DNA of 64,000 nt, taken from positions 772,501 through 836,500 of the forward strand of contig NZ_JAHSPD010000001.1 in the NCBI RefSeq assembly GCF_020141465.1, read 5' to 3'. The stretch comes from Roseovarius carneus. GTDB taxonomy: Bacteria > Pseudomonadota > Alphaproteobacteria > Rhodobacterales > Rhodobacteraceae. Below are positions 11,165-62,531 of the stretch, in pieces. Every line of letters begins with the position of its first letter. Position 1 is the first letter of the stretch. The notes below the pieces were generated by a model, which saw only the letters and a list, made by a program, of their open reading frames with translations, ran no database searches and was not told where the DNA came from. The position numbers and the translations under genes were made by a program.

Positions 11165-13783
11165 TCAGTGCACCACGGCATCGCCCGGTTTGGGCGCGCT
11201 TGTGGCCCCCACGCGGTCACCGATGATCAGGCCTTCGGTGCCCGCGCTGATCGGGATCACGGAACCGTCCGTCACGCCACCTGCCAGAAGCATCTCGGCC
11301 AGCGGGTCCTGCACCGCCCGCTGAATGACCCGCTTCAAGGGCCGCGCGCCGAAGACCGGATCATAGCCCTCATCGGCCAGCCATTTGCGCGCGCCCTCGT
11401 CCAACTCAAGCGTGATCTTGCGCGCCATGAGACGGCGCGCCAGCCGGGCCAGCTGAATATCGACGATGCCATCCATATCAGCGCGCGCGAGGCGGTCAAA
11501 GATCACCGTCTCGTCCAGACGGTTGAGGAACTCGGGCCGGAAATGCGCCCGCACCGCCTCCATCACACCGCGCCGCGCATCGGCGGCGTCGGCCCCCTCG
11601 GGCAATTGGCTGAGCGCTTGTGACCCAAGGTTGGAGGTGAGCACGATCAGCGTCTGCTTGAAGTCCACAGTCCGCCCTTGGCCGTCTGTCAGCACCCCGT
11701 CATCCAAGACCTGCAACAGCACGTTGAACACATCCGGATGCGCCTTTTCGACCTCATCAAAGAGGATCACCTGATAGGGCCTGCGCCGCACGGCCTCGGT
11801 CAGCACCCCGCCCTCGTCATATCCGACATAGCCGGGAGGCGCGCCGATCAGACGCGCGACTGCGTGTTTCTCCATGAACTCAGACATATCGATGCGCACC
11901 ATCGCGCTGTCATCGTCAAAGAGAAACTCGGCCACAGCCTTGGTCAGCTCGGTCTTACCCACGCCCGTGGGACCCAGAAAGAGGAACGACCCCAAAGGCC
12001 GGTTCTCGTCATTGAGACCCGCACGCGCCCGGCGCACAGCATTGGCCACGGCCTTCACCGCTTGGTTCTGGCCGATGATCCGCTTGTGCAGACCGTCCTC
12101 CATGCCCAGCAGCTTCTCACGCTCGCCCTCAAGCATCCGCGCTGTCGGGATGCCGGTCCAACGCTCGACGACTTGCGCGATCTGCTCCGGCCGCACGGCC
12201 TCTTCGACCATCACGCCCTCATCCTCGGCCTGCTCGGCCTCGGCAAGCTGCTTTTCCAGCCCAGGAATAACACCATAGGAAAGCTCTCCGGCCTTGGCGA
12301 GGTTGCCCTCGCGCTTGGCAGCATCAAGCTCGATCCGCGCGCGGTCCAACTTCTCCTTGAGGTCGCGCGCACCGGCCAGCTTATCGCGCTCGGCCTGCCA
12401 TTTCGCTGTCATCTCCGCGCTGCGCTCTCCCAGATCGGCAAGCTCACGCTCCAGCTTTTCCAGACGGTCCTTGGACGCCGCATCATCCTCACGCCGCAGC
12501 GCCTCCGCCTCAATCTGCTTTTGCAGTATCTCGCGGTCAAGCGCGTCAAGCTCCTCGGGTTTGCTGTCCACCTCCATCCGCAGACGCGAGGCCGCCTCAT
12601 CCATCAGGTCAATCGCCTTGTCGGGCAGGAACCTGTCGGTGATGTAGCGATGGCTGAGCGTGGCGGCTGTGACCAGCGCACTGTCGGAAATCCGCACACC
12701 GTGGTGAAGCTCATACTTCTCCTTGATGCCGCGCAGGATGGAGATCGTGTCCTCCACCGTCGGCTCTTCGACCACGATGGGTTGAAACCGGCGGGCAAGG
12801 GCTGCGTCTTTCTCCACATGTTTGCGGTATTCATCCAGCGTGGTGGCCCCGATACAGTGCAACTCCCCGCGCGCAAGCGCCGGCTTGATCAGGTTCGCCG
12901 CATCCATGGCGCCGTCACCCTTGCCCGCGCCGATCAGCGTGTGCATCTCGTCGATGAAAAGGATGATCTCACCGGCCGCAGAGGTGACCTCGCTCAGAAC
13001 CGCCTTGAGGCGCTCTTCGAACTCCCCGCGATATTTCGCCCCGGCAATCAGAGCCCCCATATCGAGGCTCAGCAGACGCTTGTTCGCAAGACTCTCGGGC
13101 ACGTCGCCATTGACGATGCGCAGGGCCAGACCTTCGGCAATCGCGGTTTTACCCACCCCCGGCTCCCCGATCAGAACGGGGTTGTTCTTGGTCCGGCGGC
13201 TCAAGACCTGCATGGCGCGGCGGATCTCGTCATCGCGCCCTATGATAGGATCAATCTTGCCCTCGGCAGCGGCGGCTGTGAGGTCGGAGGCGTATTTTTC
13301 GAGCGCCTCGAACGTGTCCTCCGCACTCGCCGTGTCGGCGGTGCGGCCCTTGCGGACATCGTTGATGGCCTCGTTGAGCTTCTGCGCGCTGACATCGCCC
13401 GCCTCAAGCGCGGTCTTGGCCTCGGATTTCACCATGGCAAGCGCGGTGAGGATCCGCTCCACCGGCACGAAACTGTCCTTGGCTTTCTCGGCCAGTTTCT
13501 CCGCCTCGCTCAGAACCTTCACGGTCTGCTGATCGAGATAGGTCTGCCCCGCATCGCCGCTGACCACGGGGATCTTGCCCATGGCCAGATCAAGCGCCTG
13601 CACAACGCGCGCAGGGTCACCCCCAGCGCGCTTGATGAGATTCGAGGCAAGCCCTTCGCCATCATCCATCAACGCTTTGAGAATATGTTCGGGCGCCAGC
13701 TTCTGGTGGCTCTCCCGCATCGCGATCGTCTGAGCGGCTTGCACAAAGCCGCGCGACCGCTCGGTGAACTTGGTTAAGTCCAT
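11165..13783 (-). CDS. clpB: ClpB, AAA+ protein disaggregase
   Basis: An 872-residue Hsp100 chaperone that works with DnaK to pull apart aggregated proteins in the cytoplasm. Visible in order: the N-terminal substrate domain ('[18 protein letters not shown]'), first AAA+ module with Walker A 'GEPGVGKTA' and Walker B '[10 protein letters not shown]', a long coiled-coil middle domain (about 400-530), and second AAA+ module with 'GPTGVGKTE' and '[11 protein letters not shown]'. Length is normal. Start ATG 13783 has a strong AAGGAGA site. A sigma-32-type promoter lies 80-110 nt upstream (see 13867-13893), as expected for a heat-shock gene. Confidence 0.98.
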
Positions 13784-50831: not shown

Positions 50832-52871
50832 ATGACGGGCGCGCACACGCATCTCAGGGATATCTTCGGCTATGACGCCTTCCGCCCCGGCCAAGAAGAG
50901 ATCGTGGCCGCCGTAGCAAGCGGTCAGAACGTGCTGGCCATCATGCCCACAGGTGGCGGCAAATCGCTTTGTTTTCAGCTTCCCGCACTAATGCGCGAAG
51001 GGGTTACGTTGGTCATTTCGCCGCTCATCGCGCTAATGCGCGATCAGGTCCGCGCGCTGAAGGCCGCAGGGGTGGAGGCGGCGGCCCTCACCTCGGGCAA
51101 TACCGAGGAAGAAACCAACGAGGTCTGGGACGCGCTGGAAGAGGGGCGGCTGAAGCTGCTCTATATCGCGCCCGAACGGCTGGCGGCAGGCTCTGCCGTT
51201 GGCATGTTACGCCGCATCGGGGTCAGCCTCATTGCCGTGGATGAGGCGCATTGCGTCAGCCAGTGGGGTCATGATTTCCGCCCCGATTACCTGCGTATCG
51301 GGGAGCTGCGCCGCACGCTGGGTGTGCCGCTTGCGGCCTTTACCGCCACCGCCGATTCCGAGACCCAAGACGAGATCATCGAAAAGCTCTTCGATGGGGC
51401 CGCGCCTGCGAAGTTTCTCCACGGTTTTGATCGTCCCAACATCCACCTCGCCTTCGCGGCCAAGGACGGGCCACGCCGCCAGATTCTCGACTTTGCCGCT
51501 GCCCGCAAAGGGCAATCCGGCATCGTCTATTGCGGCACCCGCGCCAAGACCGAAACCCTGTCGCAGGCTCTGGGCGAGGCGGGCCACACCGCCGCCTTCT
51601 ATCACGGCGGCATGGACCCTGATCAGCGCCGCTATGTGGAGCACAGGTTCAGCACCGAGGACGGGCTGATCGTGGTTGCCACGGTCGCCTTCGGGATGGG
51701 TGTGGACAAGCCCGACATCCGCTGGGTTGCCCATGCGGACCTCCCCAAATCCATCGAGGCCTATTATCAGGAAATCGGCCGTTCGGGGCGTGATGGCGCG
51801 CCTGCCGAGACGCTCACGCTTTATGGCCCCGACGATATCCGTCTGCGCCGCAGCCAGATTGACGAAGGCCTCGCACCCGCCGAGCGGCGCAGCGCGGATC
51901 ACGCGCGACTCAACGCGCTCTTGGGTCTGGCCGAGGCGCTAAAATGCCGCCGGGTGCAGCTTTTGGGCTATTTCGGGGAGGAGGCCACACCCTGCGGCAA
52001 TTGTGACCTCTGCGATTCCCCGCCCGCCACGTTCGACGGGACCGAGGCGGTGCGCAAAGCCCTCTCGGCAATCCTGCGCACGGGCGAGTATTTCGGCGCG
52101 GGCCATCTCATCGACATCCTCACCGGCAATGCCACAGAAAAAGTCCGCGAGCGCGGCCATGATAGCCTGCCAACCTTTGGCGTGGGAAAAGACGTGGACA
52201 AACGCCGCTGGCAGGGGATTTTTCGCCAGATGCAAGGGCACGATTTGATCCGCCCCGACCCCGAGCGGCACGGCGCACTGCGCATGACCGACCCGGCGGT
52301 GCCGATCCTGAAGGGCGAGGCGGAAATCACCCTGCGCCAAGACACCCTCGGCACCAAAGAGCGCCGCCCGGCGCCCAAGGCGCTCGTCTCGGATGAGGAC
52401 GCGCCGCTTTTGTCGGCGCTCAAGGCCAAGCGCCGGGCGTTTTCCGAGACGCAGCGCGTGCCCGCTTACGTCGTCTTCAACGACCGCACCCTGATTGAGA
52501 TGGCCGAAACCCGGCCCCAGAGCCTTGATGACATGGCGCGCATTGGCGGCGTGGGCGCGAAGAAGCTGGAGCAATATGGCGCGGCCTTTCTGGAGGTGAT
52601 CACTGGCGAGGCGGCGGCCATGCACCCGACGCGCCGCAAACTCGCCGGGCGCGAGGCAGGCACGCTCTATGATCGGCTGGTTGAGGTGCAGACAGCGCTC
52701 GCCAACGGGCCGGACGGGCATGACAAACCACTCAGCTGTTCGTCGTCCCAAATCACCAAGATCGCCCAAATGCGCCCGCGGGACGCCGCCGCCATGGCCC
52801 GCCTTCTGGACGAAAAACGCGCCGAGCGTTTCACCGCCGCCTTTCTGGAAGTTCTGGCCGAAGAGCGCTAG
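50832..52871 (+). CDS. recQ: RecQ ATP-dependent DNA helicase
   Basis: A 679-residue helicase: Walker A 'MPTGGGKSLCFQLPAL' (K44), DEAH box 'AVDEAHCVSQWGHDFRPDY', motif VI 'YYQEIGRSGRDGAPA', RecQ-Ct zinc cysteines 'CRRVQLLGYFGEEATPCGNC', winged helix, and an HRDC domain (about 520-600). A second HRDC-like segment may occupy the C-terminus. It unwinds DNA in recombination and repair. Confidence 0.97.
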   Translation: MTGAHTHLRDIFGYDAFRPGQEEIVAAVASGQNVLAIMPTGGGKSLCFQLPALMREGVTLVISPLIALMRDQVRALKAAGVEAAALTSGNTEEETNEVWDALEEGRLKLLYIAPERLAAGSAVGMLRRIGVSLIAVDEAHCVSQWGHDFRPDYLRIGELRRTLGVPLAAFTATADSETQDEIIEKLFDGAAPAKFLHGFDRPNIHLAFAAKDGPRRQILDFAAARKGQSGIVYCGTRAKTETLSQALGEAGHTAAFYHGGMDPDQRRYVEHRFSTEDGLIVVATVAFGMGVDKPDIRWVAHADLPKSIEAYYQEIGRSGRDGAPAETLTLYGPDDIRLRRSQIDEGLAPAERRSADHARLNALLGLAEALKCRRVQLLGYFGEEATPCGNCDLCDSPPATFDGTEAVRKALSAILRTGEYFGAGHLIDILTGNATEKVRERGHDSLPTFGVGKDVDKRRWQGIFRQMQGHDLIRPDPERHGALRMTDPAVPILKGEAEITLRQDTLGTKERRPAPKALVSDEDAPLLSALKAKRRAFSETQRVPAYVVFNDRTLIEMAETRPQSLDDMARIGGVGAKKLEQYGAAFLEVITGEAAAMHPTRRKLAGREAGTLYDRLVEVQTALANGPDGHDKPLSCSSSQITKIAQMRPRDAAAMARLLDEKRAERFTAAFLEVLAEER

Positions 52872-53684: not shown

Positions 53685-55880
53685 TCAGCCCGCTTCGGCC
53701 ACAGAGGGCAAGGGCGGGCGCACATCATCAGAACAGGCGTTCTCAATCCGCTCATGGATCGCGGCCTTGCGCAGCGGTTTGGTCAGATAATAATCAAGCC
53801 CCGCCGCAAGGATGCCTTTGTCGTCGCCTTCCATCGCATGGGCCGTCATAGCCACAATCGGCACATGACGCCCCGTTCCCTCCTCGATCGTGCGAATGCT
53901 GCGCGTGGCCTCCTTGCCGTCCATCTTGGGCATGGAAATATCCATGAAGACGATGTCGGGATCAAAGCTTTGATACATTTCCACCGCTTCGATTCCGTTG
54001 ACGGCGAATTTCAGATCAATATCCAGCGTCTTCACCATCTTTGAAAACACCAACTGATTGGTCTTGTTGTCCTCCGCCGCCAAAACCCTGAGGGCACGCG
54101 CTTGCGACACCACCGGACGGGTCGGTTCAGGCGTGAGCGGCGGCGTCTCAGGCATGGCGTCCCCGAGATCCGCCAGCATTGCGAAGAGATCACTGCGCGG
54201 CACAGGCTTTTGCAACATGGCGCAGAGAAACCTGCGCGCCGGGTCCTGCTCGGCGTAGCCAGTATTCCCGCTCAGCAGCACAATGGGCACGCTGTGCCCC
54301 GCGCCGCGCAACGCCTCGGCCAGCTCAAGCCCATCCATCTCGGCCATGTTATGATCCGTCAGGACCAGATCAATCTCGGGGGCCATCTGCGCCAGCGCTT
54401 CGGCCCCGCTGTGACATTCCACTGTCTCGACCCCCATCAAGCTCAGCTGTTTGGCGAGGATGGAACGATTGGCGTCCTGCGCATCCACGACCATCGCGCG
54501 GCGGACCCCTTTTGGCGGCGCGATCACCTCTTGAGCAGCCCCATCGCCCAACGGCAGGGTGATCTTGAACCCAAAGGTAGAGCCCTGCCCCTCCACACTC
54601 TCGACCCAGATATTGCCACCCATCAGCCGGATCAGCTGCTGCGAGATGGCGAGGCCAAGCCCGGTGCCCTCAAACTGCCGGTTTTGCGCCTCATCGACCT
54701 GGTTGAACTCGCCAAACACATGATCGACCTTGCCACCCGGAATGCCGATCCCGGTATCCTCGACCGTGATGTGGATCTGGGCGCAGCCGGGGGGCGAATC
54801 CTTCACACCCACCACGCGGATCAGGACATGCCCCTCCAGCGTGAATTTCACCGCATTACCAATGAGATTGGTCAAAACCTGCCGTAAGCGCCCCGGATCG
54901 CCCACAAACTGCGTTGGCAAAAAGAGATCGTAGTCGAGGAAAATCTCCAAGCCCTGATCGCGCGCCTTGGGCTGCATCAGCATAATCAACTCATGCAGGC
55001 ACAACTCCAGATCAAAAGGCTCTGGGTGCAGGAGCAGCTTTTCCGCCTCGATCTTGGAATAATCCAGCACATCGTTGATGATCACCAAAAGCGCCTCGCC
55101 GGAGTTTTTGATCGTATTGGCATAGAGCAATTGCTCCTCGTTCAGCTCAGTATCCTTGAGCAGATCGGCCATGCCAACGACCCCGTTCATCGGCGTGCGG
55201 ATCTCATGGCTCATATTAGCAAGGAAGGACGATTTTGCCCGGTTCGCCGATTCCGCCCGGCGACGCGCCTCTTTCAGCTGCTCTTCATAACGCACCGTCT
55301 CGGTGATGTTCAGCGCAAGGCTGACCACATCCCCGCCATGGCCGCGCTGATCGATCAGCTTGATGTATTCCCCGCTCCAAAGGCGGATCACCTCAGGCTC
55401 GGGGGTCAGGCCCTGCCAGCGGTCCAGCATGTTCTCACGCCAGGCCGCCGGGCTTTGATCCCCGATATTCACGATCCCCTCCTCGGTACAAAGCTGCAAA
55501 ATCTCCACATAAGAAATGCCCGGCGCAATCAGCTCCAGCCCGTCAAAAACCGAGATATAGGCCGGGTTGGCCGCGATCATCCGGCTATCGGCATCGAAAA
55601 AGGCGAACCCGTCCTGAATGGTCTCGATCGAATGCCAAAGCCGCCGCTCGGCGATCTCGACCTTCTCATTGGCCACATGCAGGTCTGATTTAACCCGCTG
55701 ATTCTCGCTCTCGACCGTCTCGACCTTTGCACGGGTCTCCACGATCTCATCCGAGAGGGCGCGCGCATGTTTGCCCAGCTTACGGTTGGCCGCATGAAGC
55801 TCCGCTTGCTTTTGTTCCAGCAGCCGTTCGGCGGCAAGCCGCGCCCGCCGTTCCTGTGAAAGTTTGTTGGCAAGGCTCAT
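53685..55880 (-). CDS. Hybrid sensor histidine kinase with PAS, kinase core and two receiver domains
   Basis: A 731-residue cytoplasmic protein without membrane segments. In order: an N-terminal coiled coil (about 1-85), a PAS domain ('SIETIQDGFAFFDADSRMIAANPAY'), HisKA with H225 in 'MSHEIRTPMNGVVGM', HATPase ('LTNLIGNAVKFT', 'VEDTGIGIPGG', 'EGTGLGLAISQQLIRLMGG'), a first receiver ('VVDAQDANRSILAK' ... 'LVLTDHNMAEMDG'), and a second receiver ('LAAEDNKTNQLVF' ... 'IVFMDISMPKMDG'). The first receiver keeps the phospho-acceptor but has a weakened acidic pair (D-A). ATG 55880 has GGAGG at 6 nt. Confidence 0.93.
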   Translation of the reverse strand: MSLANKLSQERRARLAAERLLEQKQAELHAANRKLGKHARALSDEIVETRAKVETVESENQRVKSDLHVANEKVEIAERRLWHSIETIQDGFAFFDADSRMIAANPAYISVFDGLELIAPGISYVEILQLCTEEGIVNIGDQSPAAWRENMLDRWQGLTPEPEVIRLWSGEYIKLIDQRGHGGDVVSLALNITETVRYEEQLKEARRRAESANRAKSSFLANMSHEIRTPMNGVVGMADLLKDTELNEEQLLYANTIKNSGEALLVIINDVLDYSKIEAEKLLLHPEPFDLELCLHELIMLMQPKARDQGLEIFLDYDLFLPTQFVGDPGRLRQVLTNLIGNAVKFTLEGHVLIRVVGVKDSPPGCAQIHITVEDTGIGIPGGKVDHVFGEFNQVDEAQNRQFEGTGLGLAISQQLIRLMGGNIWVESVEGQGSTFGFKITLPLGDGAAQEVIAPPKGVRRAMVVDAQDANRSILAKQLSLMGVETVECHSGAEALAQMAPEIDLVLTDHNMAEMDGLELAEALRGAGHSVPIVLLSGNTGYAEQDPARRFLCAMLQKPVPRSDLFAMLADLGDAMPETPPLTPEPTRPVVSQARALRVLAAEDNKTNQLVFSKMVKTLDIDLKFAVNGIEAVEMYQSFDPDIVFMDISMPKMDGKEATRSIRTIEEGTGRHVPIVAMTAHAMEGDDKGILAAGLDYYLTKPLRKAAIHERIENACSDDVRPPLPSVAEAG

Positions 55881-56023
55881 GCCCATCCTCCGCCGCGCCG
55901 GACCCTTTGTTGACGCAGACGATGGGGGCACAAGGTGAACAAGTGTTTAAGAGCCGCCCTTGAATCATTGCCACACGCGCGCCTCCGTGCAAGCATCGGG
56001 GGAGGTCCATTCAGGAGGGCGCC

Positions 56024-59000
56024 ATGTTTCACCGCGCATTTTTTATCGTCTTTTCAATCGCTTTCGCGGCCCAAACCATTGGCGAAGCCACCGCGCAATC
56101 CGGCCTGCCCGACCGCCGCGCGGTGCTGACAAACAATATCGACCATTACGGCGCGGACCTCACACCGCTTTTCGACACCAGCTTTGACGCGTGCCGCACC
56201 GCGTGTCTGACGAATCCCGCGTGCCGCGCCTTCACATACAACACCCGCTCCAACGCCTGCTTCCCCAAGAGCAGTGTGAGTGATGAAGTCCCCTATGACG
56301 GCGCGCAATCAGCCCGCATCCTGCCCACCGATGCGAGCGTGCTATCCCAAGCGGACGCGCGCGAAAATGACCTGAGCTTTCTGGGCGAGGCCACAATGAC
56401 CGCCGCGCATGATCTCGCGATCCGCATTGGCGGGTTGCACAATGCGGGCACCTGGCCGGTTGAGCAGATGCTGAACGCGAGCCGCGACCGCATGGGCGAG
56501 GGTGATCCCCTGAACGCGATGCGCTGGATGGGCGCGGCTGTGTCGCTCACAGATGCGGCGGATCAATGGGTGGAATATGCGCGGCTCTTGATGCTGCAAC
56601 CCGACGACACCAATCGCTACACCGCCCGCGCCATATCCGCCGCCACCAACGGCTATCTGCGTGCCCAAGGCAGAGGCGGGCAGGTCTCATCGCTGATGAT
56701 GCTGGCCGAGACGCTGGAGGCGAACGGACGGGGCCGCGATACTGTGGCCGCCCTGCGCCTCGCCAATGCGCTCTCACCACGCGATGACGTGGTGGCCGCA
56801 TTGGAGTCCGCCACGGCGAAGTACGGCTTTCGGATCACCGAAAACACCGCCGATAACGATGCCGCGAACCCGCGCCTATGTGCGATCTTCTCCGAGGATC
56901 TGATCCAGACGGGCACGGATTACACGCCCTTCGTGCAGCTGCCTGATGCGGGGCTTGTCGTGCAGGTGGAGGGGCGGCAGCTTTGCATCGACGGGCTCAG
57001 CCATGGTGCGCGCTACAGCGTGACGTTCCGCTCAGGCCTGCCTGCGGCCAATGGTGAGGCGCTGCTGAAGGATGTGCAGATCACGCAATATATCCGCGAC
57101 CGCGCGCCGTCGGTGGTGTTTCCGGGCCGCGCCTATGTGCTGCCGCGCGCCGCCGATGCAGCCCTGCCCATCGAGACGGTGAACCTCGCCGAGGTCGATC
57201 TGACCCTGCGCCGGGTGAGTGACCGCAACCTCCTGCGCGCCATTCAGGATGACTATTTCGGACGCCCCCTGACCGATTATGAGCTGTCGGAGTTTTCCGA
57301 GGAGATCGCGACTGATATCTGGACCGGGGTGGGCGAGGTGCAGAACCAGCTCAACCAGACCATGACGACCCGCCTGCCGATGGGGGAGGTTCTCGCCGAT
57401 CAGCCGCCGGGCATCTATGCACTGACCGCGCGGATCGAGGGCATGCCGCTTTACGATGATCCGGGGGCAACACAATGGTTCGTGCTGAGCGATCTGGGGC
57501 TGACCACGCTCAAGGGCACAGACGGGCTGCATGTGTTTGCGCGCGGGCTTGGGGATGCGCGCAGCATTGAGGGCGCTGAGATCACGCTTTTGTCGCGCGC
57601 GAACGAGGTTCTGGGCACCGCGATGACAGACGACATGGGCCATGCGATCTTCGCGCCGGGCCTCACACGCGGCACCGGAGGTGCGGCCCCTGCGATGGTT
57701 CTGGTGGAGACTGATGCAGGCGAGGATATGGCCTTCCTGTCGCTCACGGACCCTGCGTTTGATCTGTCGGATCGCGGCGTTGAGGGCCGACCGCCCGCAC
57801 CACCTGTTGATGTGTTTCTGGCCACTGATCGCGGGGCCTACCGCGCGGGCGAGGTGATCCACGCCACCGCACTTGCGCGCGATACGCTGGCCCGCGCGAT
57901 CCCCGGCCTGCCGCTTACCGCGATCCTGATGCGGCCCGATGGTGTGGAATATTCCCGCCACCTTTCGGCCGAAGATCGCGCGGGCGGTCACGTCTTTGCC
58001 CTGCCCATCACCGAGACCGCGCCGCGCGGGACATGGGCGCTGGAAATCCGCGCCGATATGGATGCGCCCGCATTGGCGAGCACACGGCTTCTGGTCGAGG
58101 ATTTCCTGCCCGAGCGGATTGATTTTGACCTCACCCTGCCTGATGGAATGCTGCGGCGCGACGCACCCGGCGCAGAGGGGAGCGCAATCGGGATCGACGC
58201 GCGCTATCTCTTTGGCGCGCCCGGTGCGGGGCTCAAGGCGGATGGCAGCATGACTCTCACGCCGCAGCGGCGTCTGCCAGACTTCCCCGGATTCGCGTTT
58301 GGTCGCCATGATGCGCCGGGCACTGCACGTGTGAGCTATCTTGAGACGGTCACCACAGGGCCGGACGGGGCGGCCTCCCTGCCTCTCACCCTGCCAGACA
58401 CAGGCGAAAGCACCCTGCCACAAGAGGCCCGCGCGACCATCGCGGTGCGCGAAGGATCAGGCCGCCCGGTGGAGCGCGGTATCACCCGCCTCCTCGCCCC
58501 CTCCGGGCCGTTTCTCGGTATCAAACCCGCCCAAAACGGCGTGATCCCCGAAGGCGGCACAGCCACATTCGATGTGATCGCCCTTGGCACAGATTTGGAG
58601 CCAATGGCGATGGAGGTGGATTGGTCTCTCTCGCGCGTCACCACGACCTATCAATGGTACCAGCAATGGGGCAACTGGAACTGGGAACCCATCACGCGGC
58701 GCGAGCGTGTGGCGAACGGTACGCTCACCTTGGACGGTGCGCAAACCATCTCGGCCCCGGTCGGATGGGGCGAATATGAGCTGAGCGTGGAGCGGACGGA
58801 CGGCACCTATACCGCCGCCAGCACGACATTCTATGCAGGCTGGTATACCCCCGCAGATGCCACAAGCACGCCCGATACGCTGGAGCTGTCGCTGGACAAA
58901 CCCGCCTATGCCACGGGCGAGACGGCCCAGCTGCGCCTTGTGCCGCGCTATGCGGGCACCGCGCTGATCACCGTCCTGTCGAACCGGGTGATTGATATGC

Positions 59001-60835
59001 AGGCGGTGGAGGTCAGCGCGGGCGCGTATGTCACCGCCCAAATCATCCGCCCCATGGATGTGGCCATAGGGCAGAACCCAGCGCGCAGCCTCGGCCTCGC
59101 CCATGCCATGATAGACCCCGGCGCACGCACGCTGAGTGTTGAAATCGCAGCGCCCGAAACGTCAGACCCGCGCGGACCGCTAGAGGCAGTCGTGACCGTG
59201 GATGGCCTCAACGGGGCCGATGGCTTTGTCACGCTGGCCGCTGTGGATCTGGGTATCCTCAACCTCACAGGATTCGCCACACCCGACCCCGAGGCGCATT
59301 ACTTCGGCCAGCGCCGCCTTGGCGTGGAAATCCGCGATATCTATGGCCGCCTCACCCAGGCTGAGGCGGCGCTTCTTGTGGCCCTGCCGCAATCGCCCGA
59401 AACCCGCCGCCCGGACCGGCACCACGCCGCCGCCACAGCCGCCCGCGCCCGTGTTCTGGGCCGGATGGAGGCCGCGGGCGTGCTGAGCACTGAGGCCGCC
59501 ACCGCCGCTCTATTCGACCCTGTTCCGGCCCAAAGACGTGCTTTTCCGGCCCTCGCCCCGCATCTCACCGACCGTGCTCTGGCCGAAGCATCCGACAAGC
59601 GTCTGCACGCCCTCACCATCGACGCGGTCCTGCAATCGCGGATTGAGACCCTTGCCGCCACCCGATTGCGCGACCTGCCCGAAACGGTCTCTATCGCTAT
59701 CGTGATTGCCGATCACCAGACGGGCGCGATCCGCGCCTCCCTCGGCTCGGCGGGCTACGCGCCGGGCGCGCGGGCGGGTTTCGTGGACATGACACAGGCC
59801 CTCCGGTCGCCCGGCTCCACGCTCAAACCTCTCATCTATGGGATGGGTTTTGATCGCGGCCTCGCCCATCCCCAGACCCTGATCCGCGACGCGCCCGTGC
59901 AGTTCGGCAGCTACGCGCCGCAAAACTTCGATGGACGTTTCCGGGGCGACGTCACCGTGCAATCGGCGCTGCGCCAATCGCTCAACATCCCCGTGGTTCT
60001 GCTGATGGATGAGATCGGCCCCGCACATCTTATGGATACATTGCGCCGCGCAGGTATCCACGCCGAGGTGCCGGGCGGGCGCGCAGGTCTGGCCGTGGCG
60101 CTGGGCGGGGTGGGCATGAGCCTCGAAGGGCTGGTGCAACTTTATGGCGGCATCGCACGCGGCGGAGACGCCCTCGCGCTCCATCACCGCGCGGGCGACA
60201 CCCCGGCCTCCGCACGCATCCTCAGTCCATCCGCCGCGTGGCATATCAGCGATATCCTCGCAGGGCTCGCCCCGCCACCCGGCGCACCCGCGCGCAGTCT
60301 GGCCTACAAGACCGGCACCTCTTACGGCCACCGTGATGCGTGGGCCATCGGCTATGACGGGCGGCATGTGGCAGGCGTCTGGATCGGGCGGCCCGATGGG
60401 ACACCTCTGCCCGGCGCGTTTGGCGGTGACCTTGCGGCCCCGCTGCTCTTTGAGGCGTTCCAGAGATTGGAGACCGCGCGCACCCCGCTGCCCGCACCAC
60501 CGGCTGAGACCCTGCTTCTGAGCACACAAGAGCTGCCCCGGCCCCTGCGCCGCTTTGCCGGGCGCGAGACGGTTTTCGCCCCCGCCGCCGATGCGCCCAA
60601 GCTGATTTTTCCACCGGACGGGGCGGAATTGATGGCCGACGGACCCCTCACCATAAAACTGCGCGATGGCAAGCCGCCCTTCACGCTGATGGCCAATGGT
60701 GCGCCGGTGCTGACCGGGCTTTATCGCCGCGATGCGGAATTGGCCACGCTCGGCACGGGCTTCTCGGACCTTACGGTGATTGATGCTTTGGGGCGCACCG
60801 CCCATGTCACGGTGCGGCTGCGCGACACGCCTTAA
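56024..60835 (+). CDS. Chimera: alpha-2-macroglobulin N-terminal two thirds fused in frame to a penicillin-binding protein 1C lacking its glycosyltransferase domain
   Basis: A 1603-residue protein. It opens with a signal peptide (1-25, no lipobox), a PAN/Apple-like cysteine domain (about 38-95) and then bacterial alpha-2-macroglobulin (YfhM-type) MG domains ('DVFLATDRGAYRAGEVI', 'AAVDLGILNLTGFATP', 'HYFGQRRLGVEIRDIYGRL'). At residue 1110 it switches to PBP1C sequence beginning 'LTQAEAALLVALPQSPE', the end of the glycosyltransferase domain, then a transpeptidase with S1265-T-L-K1268, S1319-L-N and K1429-T-G, and a C-terminal BiPBP domain. Missing are the A2M thioester/receptor half and the PBP1C transmembrane anchor plus most of its glycosyltransferase. 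In Proteobacteria these are two adjacent genes. AGGAGG precedes ATG 56024. Confidence 0.9.
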   Translation: MFHRAFFIVFSIAFAAQTIGEATAQSGLPDRRAVLTNNIDHYGADLTPLFDTSFDACRTACLTNPACRAFTYNTRSNACFPKSSVSDEVPYDGAQSARILPTDASVLSQADARENDLSFLGEATMTAAHDLAIRIGGLHNAGTWPVEQMLNASRDRMGEGDPLNAMRWMGAAVSLTDAADQWVEYARLLMLQPDDTNRYTARAISAATNGYLRAQGRGGQVSSLMMLAETLEANGRGRDTVAALRLANALSPRDDVVAALESATAKYGFRITENTADNDAANPRLCAIFSEDLIQTGTDYTPFVQLPDAGLVVQVEGRQLCIDGLSHGARYSVTFRSGLPAANGEALLKDVQITQYIRDRAPSVVFPGRAYVLPRAADAALPIETVNLAEVDLTLRRVSDRNLLRAIQDDYFGRPLTDYELSEFSEEIATDIWTGVGEVQNQLNQTMTTRLPMGEVLADQPPGIYALTARIEGMPLYDDPGATQWFVLSDLGLTTLKGTDGLHVFARGLGDARSIEGAEITLLSRANEVLGTAMTDDMGHAIFAPGLTRGTGGAAPAMVLVETDAGEDMAFLSLTDPAFDLSDRGVEGRPPAPPVDVFLATDRGAYRAGEVIHATALARDTLARAIPGLPLTAILMRPDGVEYSRHLSAEDRAGGHVFALPITETAPRGTWALEIRADMDAPALASTRLLVEDFLPERIDFDLTLPDGMLRRDAPGAEGSAIGIDARYLFGAPGAGLKADGSMTLTPQRRLPDFPGFAFGRHDAPGTARVSYLETVTTGPDGAASLPLTLPDTGESTLPQEARATIAVREGSGRPVERGITRLLAPSGPFLGIKPAQNGVIPEGGTATFDVIALGTDLEPMAMEVDWSLSRVTTTYQWYQQWGNWNWEPITRRERVANGTLTLDGAQTISAPVGWGEYELSVERTDGTYTAASTTFYAGWYTPADATSTPDTLELSLDKPAYATGETAQLRLVPRYAGTALITVLSNRVIDMQAVEVSAGAYVTAQIIRPMDVAIGQNPARSLGLAHAMIDPGARTLSVEIAAPETSDPRGPLEAVVTVDGLNGADGFVTLAAVDLGILNLTGFATPDPEAHYFGQRRLGVEIRDIYGRLTQAEAALLVALPQSPETRRPDRHHAAATAARARVLGRMEAAGVLSTEAATAALFDPVPAQRRAFPALAPHLTDRALAEASDKRLHALTIDAVLQSRIETLAATRLRDLPETVSIAIVIADHQTGAIRASLGSAGYAPGARAGFVDMTQALRSPGSTLKPLIYGMGFDRGLAHPQTLIRDAPVQFGSYAPQNFDGRFRGDVTVQSALRQSLNIPVVLLMDEIGPAHLMDTLRRAGIHAEVPGGRAGLAVALGGVGMSLEGLVQLYGGIARGGDALALHHRAGDTPASARILSPSAAWHISDILAGLAPPPGAPARSLAYKTGTSYGHRDAWAIGYDGRHVAGVWIGRPDGTPLPGAFGGDLAAPLLFEAFQRLETARTPLPAPPAETLLLSTQELPRPLRRFAGRETVFAPAADAPKLIFPPDGAELMADGPLTIKLRDGKPPFTLMANGAPVLTGLYRRDAELATLGTGFSDLTVIDALGRTAHVTVRLRDTP

Positions 60836-60851
60836 TGCGCAAGGTTAGAGC

Positions 60852-61538
60852 CTAAACCGCCTCAGCAGCCGCCCGAATGGCGCGGATATTATCACCATAA
60901 GGCGCTGGGTTCTCGACACTTCCGCCCTTGAACACGGCAGAGCCCGCCACCAGAACATCCGCCCCCGCCGCCGCCATCAAAGGCGCTGTCTCGGGCGTGA
61001 TGCCACCGTCGCTCTCGATATGAATGGGCCGGTCGCCGATCATGGCGCGCAGAGAGCGGACCTTCTCAATCTGGCTATGGATGAATTTCTGCCCGCCATA
61101 GCCGGGGTTCACCGTCATCACACAGACCAGATCAATCATATCCAGCAAATGCCCCACATCATCCAGCCCCGTGCCCGGATTAAGCGCCAGCCCCGCCTTG
61201 CACCCCGCCCCGCGTATCGCCTGAAGCGTGCGGTGAATATGCGGCCCCGCCTCAAGATGCGCGGTCAGGATATCGGCCCCTGCATCGGCAAAGGCGTCGA
61301 TATAGGGATCAACCGGCGCGATCATCAGATGCACGTCCATCACCGTCTTGATATGTGGGCGGATCGCCTTGACCAATGGCGGCCCGAAGGTGAGGTTCGG
61401 CACGAAATGCCCGTCCATCACATCCACATGGACCCAATCACAGCCCTCATCCTCAATGGCGCGGATCTCCGCACCGAAATTGGCGAAATCAGCCGAAAGG
61501 ATCGACGGGGCGATCTTGATCTGGCGGGAAAAGGACAT
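60852..61538 (-). CDS. rpe: Ribulose-phosphate 3-epimerase
   Basis: A 228-residue TIM-barrel enzyme: 'KIAPSILSADFANFGAEI', 'DWVHVDVMDGHFVPNLTFGP', 'DVHLMIAPVDPY', 'VMTVNPGYGGQKFI' and 'ESDGGITPETAPLM' are all family motifs. It interconverts ribulose-5-P and xylulose-5-P in the pentose phosphate and Calvin pathways. ATG 61538 has AGGAG at 8 nt. It converges with the 1603-codon gene, 16 bp apart. Confidence 0.97.
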   Translation of the reverse strand: MSFSRQIKIAPSILSADFANFGAEIRAIEDEGCDWVHVDVMDGHFVPNLTFGPPLVKAIRPHIKTVMDVHLMIAPVDPYIDAFADAGADILTAHLEAGPHIHRTLQAIRGAGCKAGLALNPGTGLDDVGHLLDMIDLVCVMTVNPGYGGQKFIHSQIEKVRSLRAMIGDRPIHIESDGGITPETAPLMAAAGADVLVAGSAVFKGGSVENPAPYGDNIRAIRAAAEAV

Positions 61539-61683
61539 CTGGCAGCTCCTCTTGGCGTCTCCCACCGCTTTTGCGGCCCGCGCCCCGCCTCGTCAAGCCC
61601 TAGGCCCGCCCGATTGCAGCCCAAGCCGGATTGTGCAACCGTTCTGGTGCGCATGCTGCGCGCAAAAACATGAGAGTCCACTT

Positions 61684-62127
61684 ATGACAGATGAGGCCCT
61701 TTCGCGTTGGTTTGAGGTGGATCAGACCCGCATCGACGCGTTTGCAGCCGCCACGGGTGATGCGCAATTCATCCATACCGATCCCACTCGCGCGGCCCAA
61801 ACACCCTTTGGCGGGACAATCGCGCACGGGTTCCTGACACTCTCGCTTCTGTCCGCGATGTATCTGGACGCGCTTCCCACGCCGCCCGGTGTGGCGCATT
61901 CGATCAACTATGGCTTTGACAAGCTGCGCTTCATGGCCCCAGTGCCTGCGGGCAGCCATCTGCGCGGCGCCTTCCGGCTGATCCACGCCGAAACCCGCGT
62001 GCCGGGCCAGATCAGCAACACATGGGCCGTGCGGGTCGAGATCAAAGGCGGCGAGAAACCGGCCCTCATGGCGCGCTGGCTGACACGGCAATATCTCGGC
62101 CAAACCCCGGCGGGAGAGGGCGCATGA
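61684..62127 (+). CDS. MaoC-like hot-dog-fold dehydratase
   Basis: A 147-residue R-hydratase-type protein. Catalytic D-x4-H is in 'DAQFIHTDPTRAAQTPFGGTIAHGFLTLSLL'. Such enzymes hydrate trans-2-enoyl-CoA in beta-oxidation or PHA supply. The start follows a poor ribosome site (no clear SD), but homology begins at ATG 61684. It overlaps the next gene by 4 bp (ATGA). Confidence 0.93.
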   Translation: MTDEALSRWFEVDQTRIDAFAAATGDAQFIHTDPTRAAQTPFGGTIAHGFLTLSLLSAMYLDALPTPPGVAHSINYGFDKLRFMAPVPAGSHLRGAFRLIHAETRVPGQISNTWAVRVEIKGGEKPALMARWLTRQYLGQTPAGEGA

Positions 62128-62531
62128 GTATAGACCCCGCATTGCTGGAGGAAGCCTATCCGCTTCAAAGCCATCTCGGCTTTCGCCTGACCGGCTGGCG
62201 CGCGGATTTCGCACAGGTGGAAATGCCTCTGGCGCCGTTCATGATGAACCGACAGGGCCTGCCCCATGGCGGTATCCACGCCACGCTTCTCGACACAGCG
62301 ATGGGGTTTGCGGGCTGCTATACCGGCGATCCTGCGGTGCGGCAGATGGCGCTCACACTGTCGCTGACGGTCAATTACCTCGCACAGGCGGAGGGCGACA
62401 CACTGATCGCAAAGGGCTGGCGCACGGGCGGTGGGCGCAAGACCTATTTCGCCGAAGGACGCATAGAGGATATGCACGGTACCCGCATCGCCACCGCCTC
62501 GGGTGTGTTTCGCTATCGTAGCCCCTCTTGA
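62124..62531 (+). CDS. PaaI-type hot-dog thioesterase
   Basis: A 135-residue protein with the PaaI/4HBT signature 'NRQGLPHGGIHATLLDTAMGFAG' and 'LSLTVNYLAQAEGDTLIAKGWRTGGGRKT'. It probably hydrolyses aryl- or acyl-CoA thioesters. It is translationally coupled to the MaoC-like gene, so the pair likely handles CoA intermediates. It precedes copA by 54 bp. Confidence 0.93.
   Translation: MSIDPALLEEAYPLQSHLGFRLTGWRADFAQVEMPLAPFMMNRQGLPHGGIHATLLDTAMGFAGCYTGDPAVRQMALTLSLTVNYLAQAEGDTLIAKGWRTGGGRKTYFAEGRIEDMHGTRIATASGVFRYRSPS

What the first reader, a model, noticed from the sequence alone, without database searches (positions are those of the whole stretch)
56024..60835. In-frame alpha-2-macroglobulin / PBP1C chimera that drops the thioester half and the glycosyltransferase
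The N-terminal 1110 residues are bacterial A2M up to the motif ending 'EIRDIYGRL'; the next residue begins the 'LTQAEAALLVALPQSPE' end of a PBP1C glycosyltransferase domain. The transpeptidase triad (S1265-x2-K1268, S1319-x-N, K1429-T-G) and BiPBP tail are intact. yfhM (A2M) and pbpC are normally separate neighbouring genes thought to work together: A2M traps proteases that enter after damage, PBP1C mends the wall. The join, near 59345-59356, lies in a G/C-rich stretch shared in pattern by both parents (GGCCGCCTC-like), which fits a microhomology deletion of several kb. It yields a soluble periplasmic transpeptidase on an A2M scaffold, with no membrane anchor. It is either a real novel protein or an assembly/engineered deletion.
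Basis: partly seen in the sequence, partly recalled or inferred. Interest (0 to 1): 0.87.

Follow-up and report, generated by a model that had tools for sequence, protein, structure and literature searches.

The report
Deletion-fused macroglobulin and cell-wall gene
One bacterial strain has lost the DNA between two neighbouring genes, joining the front of a protease-trap protein to the back of a cell-wall enzyme; this looks like the recent loss of both functions rather than a new working protein.

Summary
ORF 56024-60835 (1603 aa) is bacterial A2M to residue 1110, then in frame the end of PBP1C: a 41-position remnant of the glycosyltransferase, an intact transpeptidase and BiPBP_C. The nearest relative (G017, 89-91% aa identity) has the two parts as separate genes. 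The join sits on 8 bp (CCGCCTCA, 59347-59354) present in both parent genes; about 2.6 kb is gone. The tested missing A2M C-terminus (453 aa of it) is not found elsewhere in this genome. Of 84 genomes examined in the genus, 53 match at E<=1e-60 and only this one is fused; 31 have no match, so the pair is dispensable. New here: the A2M half also carries a private in-frame 15-residue deletion in the bait-region domain and a 4-residue insertion; the transpeptidase half and four control genes show no private indel where aligned. Substitution counts allow at most about 9% of the lineage's time without constraint, so the lesions are recent or the protein is still constrained. Most likely: a recent microhomology deletion that ended A2M trapping and PBP1C glycan polymerisation, a snapshot of an operon being lost. 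A working soluble transpeptidase is not excluded. An assembly error is unlikely but could not be tested without reads.

The parts
56024..60835 (+). fused ORF, 1603 aa: A2M residues 1-1110 joined to the C-terminal part of PBP1C
56024..56098 (+). signal-peptide-like start (about residues 1-25), no lipobox cysteine
   Evidence: read by eye from the translation; same look in relatives whose N-terminus was shown; no signal-peptide predictor was available
56138..56287 (+). PAN domain, about residues 39-88
   Evidence: PF00024, PF14295; also in L037
57119..57424 (+). A2M bMG2 domain, residues 366-467
57485..57793 (+). bMG3, residues 488-590
57809..58096 (+). MG2, residues 596-691
58112..58501 (+). 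bMG5, residues 697-826; holds a private 4-residue insertion after about residue 713-715
58517..58843 (+). bMG6, residues 832-940
58880..59266 (+). A2M bait-region domain, residues 953-1081, damaged (36.8 bits against 67.3 in intact L037)
59014..59015 (+). site of a private in-frame 45-nt (15-residue) deletion, between residues 997 and 998
   Evidence: present without a gap in G017 and the 9 outgroups
59347..59354 (+). deletion join: CCGCCTCA, also found in the A2M and the pbpC of G017
59347..59369 (+). perfect 8-bp inverted repeat with a 7-nt loop at the join; a 7-bp form (CCGCCTC/GAGGCGG) is in the pbpC of G017
   Evidence: G017
59345..59467 (+). remnant of the PBP1C glycosyltransferase, residues 1108-1148 (profile 137-177 of 178)
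59696..60328 (+). transpeptidase domain, residues 1225-1435, with S1265xxK, S1319xN and K1429TG
60581..60811 (+). BiPBP_C domain, residues 1520-1596

Best explanation
A spontaneous deletion of about 2.6 kb between two 8-bp copies of CCGCCTCA, one in the A2M gene and one in the adjacent pbpC, removed the A2M MG7-TED-MG10 half, the gene border, and the PBP1C membrane anchor and most of its glycosyltransferase. The two frames happened to match, so one 1603-codon frame remains. Shown: the fused frame, the 8-bp identity in the parent genes of a close relative, the absence of a second A2M thioester half or second PBP1C in the genome. Inferred: slippage or annealing at GC-rich repeats, helped by a hairpin-capable sequence at the pbpC end. 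The product can no longer trap proteases (no thioester domain, damaged bait domain) or polymerise glycan. It is best read as a recent loss-of-function allele of a dispensable A2M/PBP1C pair; a transpeptidase fold may remain as a residue.
For: Separate genes in the fetched relatives of the genus on one contig (e.g. L037, L039) and in G017 on two contigs. 8-bp join. PF00207 absent from the genome; a 453-residue A2M C-terminus from G017 has no match in G000; remaining Transgly matches belong to other proteins. Only fused case among 53 matching genomes of 84 in the genus; 50 have both genes, 2 fragmentary assemblies show one, 31 show neither. Two further private indels, both in the A2M half; 4 of 5 substitutions at outgroup-invariant A2M sites lie in residues 940-1010 around the 15-residue deletion, binomial p 0.0004 with the window chosen after seeing the data. 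A2M is also split over frames in G054, G064 and G077 with pbpC whole.
Against: The frame has no stop or frameshift, and all three private length changes (fusion, -45 nt, +12 nt) keep the frame, which has chance 1/27 if frames were random. Substitution counts show no clear relaxation: strict 10 against 7 in G017 (controls 7 against 9, one-sided p 0.30), loose 39 against 29 (controls 25 against 35, one-sided p 0.055, two-sided 0.11). The transpeptidase motifs are intact and that part folds well in AlphaFold2 (mean pLDDT 79). No expression data.
Confidence: 0.74

Rival explanations
1. The fused protein is kept by selection as an exported, soluble transpeptidase on an A2M scaffold.
For: Open 4.8-kb frame, three of three length changes in frame, transpeptidase motifs intact, no private indel in the PBP half, dN/dS between this genome and G017 low at 0.094 in the PBP half and 0.130 in the A2M half, close to the histidine kinase control at 0.117 (most of that divergence may precede the fusion).
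Against: Found in one genome only (with cut-off lists in 33). The A2M half is losing conserved structure. The role PMC6131605 suggests for PBP1C is extra glycosyltransferase activity (passage), the part that is lost.
Confidence: 0.13
2. Assembly error or a deletion that arose in the sequenced culture only.
For: One genome, no reads available; the A2M/pbpC region is GC-rich.
Against: The assembly has 3 contigs, 99.99% completeness and 0 contamination by the tool's figures. An 8-bp match is too short for usual assembly overlaps (general knowledge). The 15-residue deletion in the same gene is a separate private event. A deletion fixed only in the culture cannot be excluded.
Confidence: 0.1
3. Deliberate engineering of the strain.
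For: None beyond the frame being kept.
Against: Join on natural 8-bp identity spanning two genes, no scar or marker seen in the sequence read around the join, plus an unrelated private deletion.
Confidence: 0.02

Closest known systems
Type I bacterial alpha-2-macroglobulin (E. coli YfhM/ECAM, PDB 4RTD)
   Same: MG-domain scaffold up to the bait-region domain; phmmer of the G017 orthologue matches 4rtd_A over 333-1120
   Different: here the thioester domain, PF00207 domain and MG10 are missing and the bait-region domain lacks 15 residues; signal-like start without lipobox
Penicillin-binding protein 1C (PbpC, TIGR02073)
   Same: best NCBIfam match, transpeptidase and BiPBP_C parts kept
   Different: 411 bits, below the 494.2 cut-off; only 41 of 178 glycosyltransferase positions and no N-terminal anchor; intact L037 scores 661
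A2M-pbpC gene pair described in E. coli and others (PMC4498604, PMC5764988; passages seen)
   Same: same two neighbouring genes, proposed trap-and-repair pair
   Different: here merged by deletion; neither paper's text holds the words fused or fusion

Membership tests
Type I bacterial A2M | CxEQ thioester motif and TED domain | tested here: not met
   no TED or PF00207 domain in the ORF; motif lies in the deleted part in G017 (YGCTEQ)
Type I bacterial A2M | MG scaffold with bait-region domain | tested here: met
   bMG2, bMG3, MG2, bMG5, bMG6 and BRD over cut-off, but the BRD is 15 residues short
Type I bacterial A2M | protease trapping | not testable with these tools
   needs protein work
PBP1C / class A PBP | complete glycosyltransferase domain | tested here: not met
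   profile 137-177 of 178, 20.1 bits against cut-off 27; G017 and L037 have it whole
PBP1C / class A PBP | transpeptidase motifs SxxK, SxN, KTG | tested here: met
PBP1C / class A PBP | TIGR02073 score over its cut-off | tested here: not met
   411.4 against 494.2
PBP1C / class A PBP | N-terminal membrane anchor | tested here: not met
   PBP1C N-terminus deleted; by alignment, no topology predictor used
established A2M-PBP1C fusion family | same architecture in several species | tested here: not met
   1 of 53 matching genus genomes; no other fusion seen among listed family and class matches, 8 of 13 listed PBP1C open frames over 1000 aa inspected and all separate genes

The most novel reading that the evidence does not exclude
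The deletion created a new secreted, unanchored D,D-transpeptidase carried on an A2M scaffold whose bait region, if cut by an invading protease, could release or alter the transpeptidase: a one-protein version of the proposed trap-and-repair pair, still under selection.
Probability: 0.07. Interest if true: 0.75.

Novelty: new variant of a known kind. Interest (0 to 1): 0.27.

Why it matters
If the main reading is right, it catches a two-gene envelope system in the act of being lost, and it fits a pair that is kept or lost together: 50 of 84 genus genomes match both genes, 31 match neither, and the 2 with only one are fragmentary assemblies. If the rival were right, it would be a natural test of whether the two proteins work as one device. 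Practically, annotation would call this gene a macroglobulin or a PBP1C, and it is probably neither in function.

Tried and rejected
Natural full-length A2M-PBP1C fusions: long open frames in other genomes were fetched and read. From the A2M list: G334, G345, G469, G440, G233. From the PBP1C lists: G704, G540, G315, G788, G409, G569, G655, G601. All 13 are separate genes, in different frames or with a stop between. Five more listed PBP1C frames over 1000 aa (G135, G302, G452, G457, G614) were not inspected. The family lists were cut off.

Translocation of the missing half: a 453-residue piece of it was not found in G000. The about 225 residues between the join and the G017 contig break were not searched for separately.

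Empty-site comparison: in genomes lacking the pair the flanking kinase is present in 8 of 8 asked, but rpe was not found within the fetched stretch beside it in 6 of 6, so no clean empty site was seen.

Structure: the A2M-side model (residues 820-1151) is good for bMG6 and poor for the bait domain (mean pLDDT 63). A joint alignment (A1) mixed the two halves and was dropped.

Papers: no A2M-PBP1C fusion showed up in the listings of searches (67 had no hits). Budd et al. 2004, the key paper on the pair, is not held.

Full report
What is there. The ORF 56024-60835 (+) is open for 1603 codons. Pfam finds PAN, bMG2, bMG3, MG2, bMG5, bMG6 and the A2M bait-region domain up to residue 1081, then the tail of Transgly (1108-1148), Transpeptidase (1225-1435) and BiPBP_C (1520-1596). 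An intact A2M from a relative (L037, 1825 aa as a stop-to-stop frame) also has PF00207, TED and bMG10, and its pbpC has the whole Transgly. NCBIfam names the second half PBP1C, but below the family's cut-off (411.4 against 494.2 bits). The transpeptidase residues S1265, K1268, S1319, N1321 and K1429-T-G are present and invariant in 20 aligned sequences.

Where it comes from. The window is G000:C1:772501-836500 in a genome of 3,050,628 bases in 3 contigs. Two contigs of its relatives have the same lengths as public records: G017:C40 (5083 bases) matches CALGEH010000040.1, an uncultured Pelagicola sp. MAG, and G018:C324 (19775 bases) matches SLDH01000251.1, a Roseovarius sp. MAG. The genus is therefore probably Roseovarius in the GTDB sense (inference).

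The join. G017 is 86% identical in DNA on both sides (window 54066-59354 and 59344-62505) and has A2M and pbpC apart. Its A2M reads TATGGCCGCCTCATCGAC and its pbpC CCTGCCCGCCTCACCCCC; the window reads TATGGCCGCCTCACCCAG. The shared run is CCGCCTCA, window 59347-59354. Runs of 8 or more make up 7.2e-5 of possible junction classes between the two genes. The ancestral sequence of this strain is not known, so the true run may have been a little longer or shorter. In G017 the span is 2618 bases if its two contigs, which break inside the missing stretch and end and begin with the same three bases, abut. In the other fetched relatives it is about 2.6-3.2 kb. The join also lies on a perfect 8-bp inverted repeat with a 7-base loop (59347-59369), of which a 7-bp form exists in the pbpC of G017. 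Hairpins are known to favour deletions between short repeats (general knowledge). CCGCCTCA occurs 17 times in the window against 4.3 expected, so it is a common word here.

Is the missing part elsewhere? PF00207 has no match in the genome. A 453-residue piece of the A2M C-terminus of G017, with the thioester motif, has no match in G000, and finds G017 and G011. The genome's other Transgly matches are in frames of 859, 733 and 342 aa; the two that align to the query's PBP half do so at about 31-40% identity, so they are not a second PBP1C.

How common is it? In the genus, 84 genomes were searched. 53 match at E<=1e-60: this one fused, 50 with both genes, and G081 and G088 (81% and 72% complete) with one each; 31 have no match, 26 of these from genomes at least 90% complete and at most 5% contaminated. 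In the family sample 220 of 394 match the PBP half and in the class sample 75 of 385, each count including G000. The family list was cut off, so open frames were seen only for the listed rows. Among listed rows other than G000, 13 PBP1C frames exceed 1000 aa; 8 were fetched, and all 8 are separate genes with overlapping open frames. Five long A2M frames were also separate genes. Independently, A2M is split over frames in G054, G064 and G077 while pbpC is whole; sequencing error is possible there.

A second lesion. Compared with G017 and the other relatives, the A2M half lacks 15 residues between 997 and 998 (45 nt), in a stretch of constant length in the 14 relatives shown; in the wider alignment A3 three of its columns are nearly invariant. 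The left flank of the deletion resembles G003 (GTCAGCGCGGGCG), whose sequence suggests another deletion between short GC-rich repeats (inference). There is also a private 4-residue insertion after about residue 713-715. The PBP half and four control genes (kinase, rpe, and the genes at 11165-13783 and 50832-52871) show no private indel in either genome where aligned; for the kinase only columns 17-390 could be compared.

Selection. Changes private to this genome against changes private to G017, at sites invariant in the outgroups: fused gene 10 against 7, controls 7 against 9 (one-sided p 0.30). On a looser count: 39 against 29, controls 25 against 35 (one-sided p 0.055, two-sided 0.11). Four of the five strict A2M changes fall in residues 940-1010, which hold 43 of 445 invariant sites (p 0.0004, window chosen after seeing the data). 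From dS and the loose counts, the share of the branch spent without constraint is about 0.04 (upper bound 0.094) for the A2M half and 0.02 (upper 0.081) for the PBP half. The same formula gives -0.064 for the kinase and 0.024 for rpe, so the estimate has a scatter of several per cent. The lesions are therefore recent, or the protein remains constrained; the data do not separate these. In favour of constraint: the frame is open and all three length changes keep the frame.

Structure. The PBP part (residues 1085-1603) is predicted with mean pLDDT 79.2 and pTM 0.71; within the transpeptidase domain most blocks of ten are near 80 or above, one at 62. The A2M side (820-1151) has a good bMG6 and a poor bait domain (mean 63.0), without a control.

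What it does. A2M trapping needs the thioester domain and an intact bait domain; PBP1C glycan synthesis needs the glycosyltransferase and membrane. Both are gone. PMC6131605 suggests a role of PBP1C where extra glycosyltransferase activity is needed (passage), and PMC4498604 and PMC5764988 describe the proposed trap-and-repair pairing (passages). What could remain is a soluble exported transpeptidase. In this genus the A2M itself has no lipobox in the relatives whose start was shown, so the lost anchor is that of PBP1C.

Verdict. A real, single-genome, in-frame deletion fusion, most likely a recent loss of both functions. Interesting as a snapshot of loss, not as a new protein family.

Noticed in passing
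window 59014/59015: Private 45-nt in-frame deletion in the A2M bait-region domain, separate from the fusion.
   Followed up: yes
window about 58163-58174: Private 4-residue insertion in bMG5.
   Followed up: partly
window 1-64000: CCGCCTCA occurs 17 times against 4.3 expected from dinucleotide shuffles.
   Followed up: no
L051, L052, L053: A2M split over reading frames in G054, G077 and G064 while pbpC stays whole: either other decaying copies or sequencing errors.
   Followed up: partly
L035/L036 contig ends: The two G017 contigs break inside the stretch deleted in the window; they share only three bases at their ends, so continuity is inferred.
   Followed up: partly
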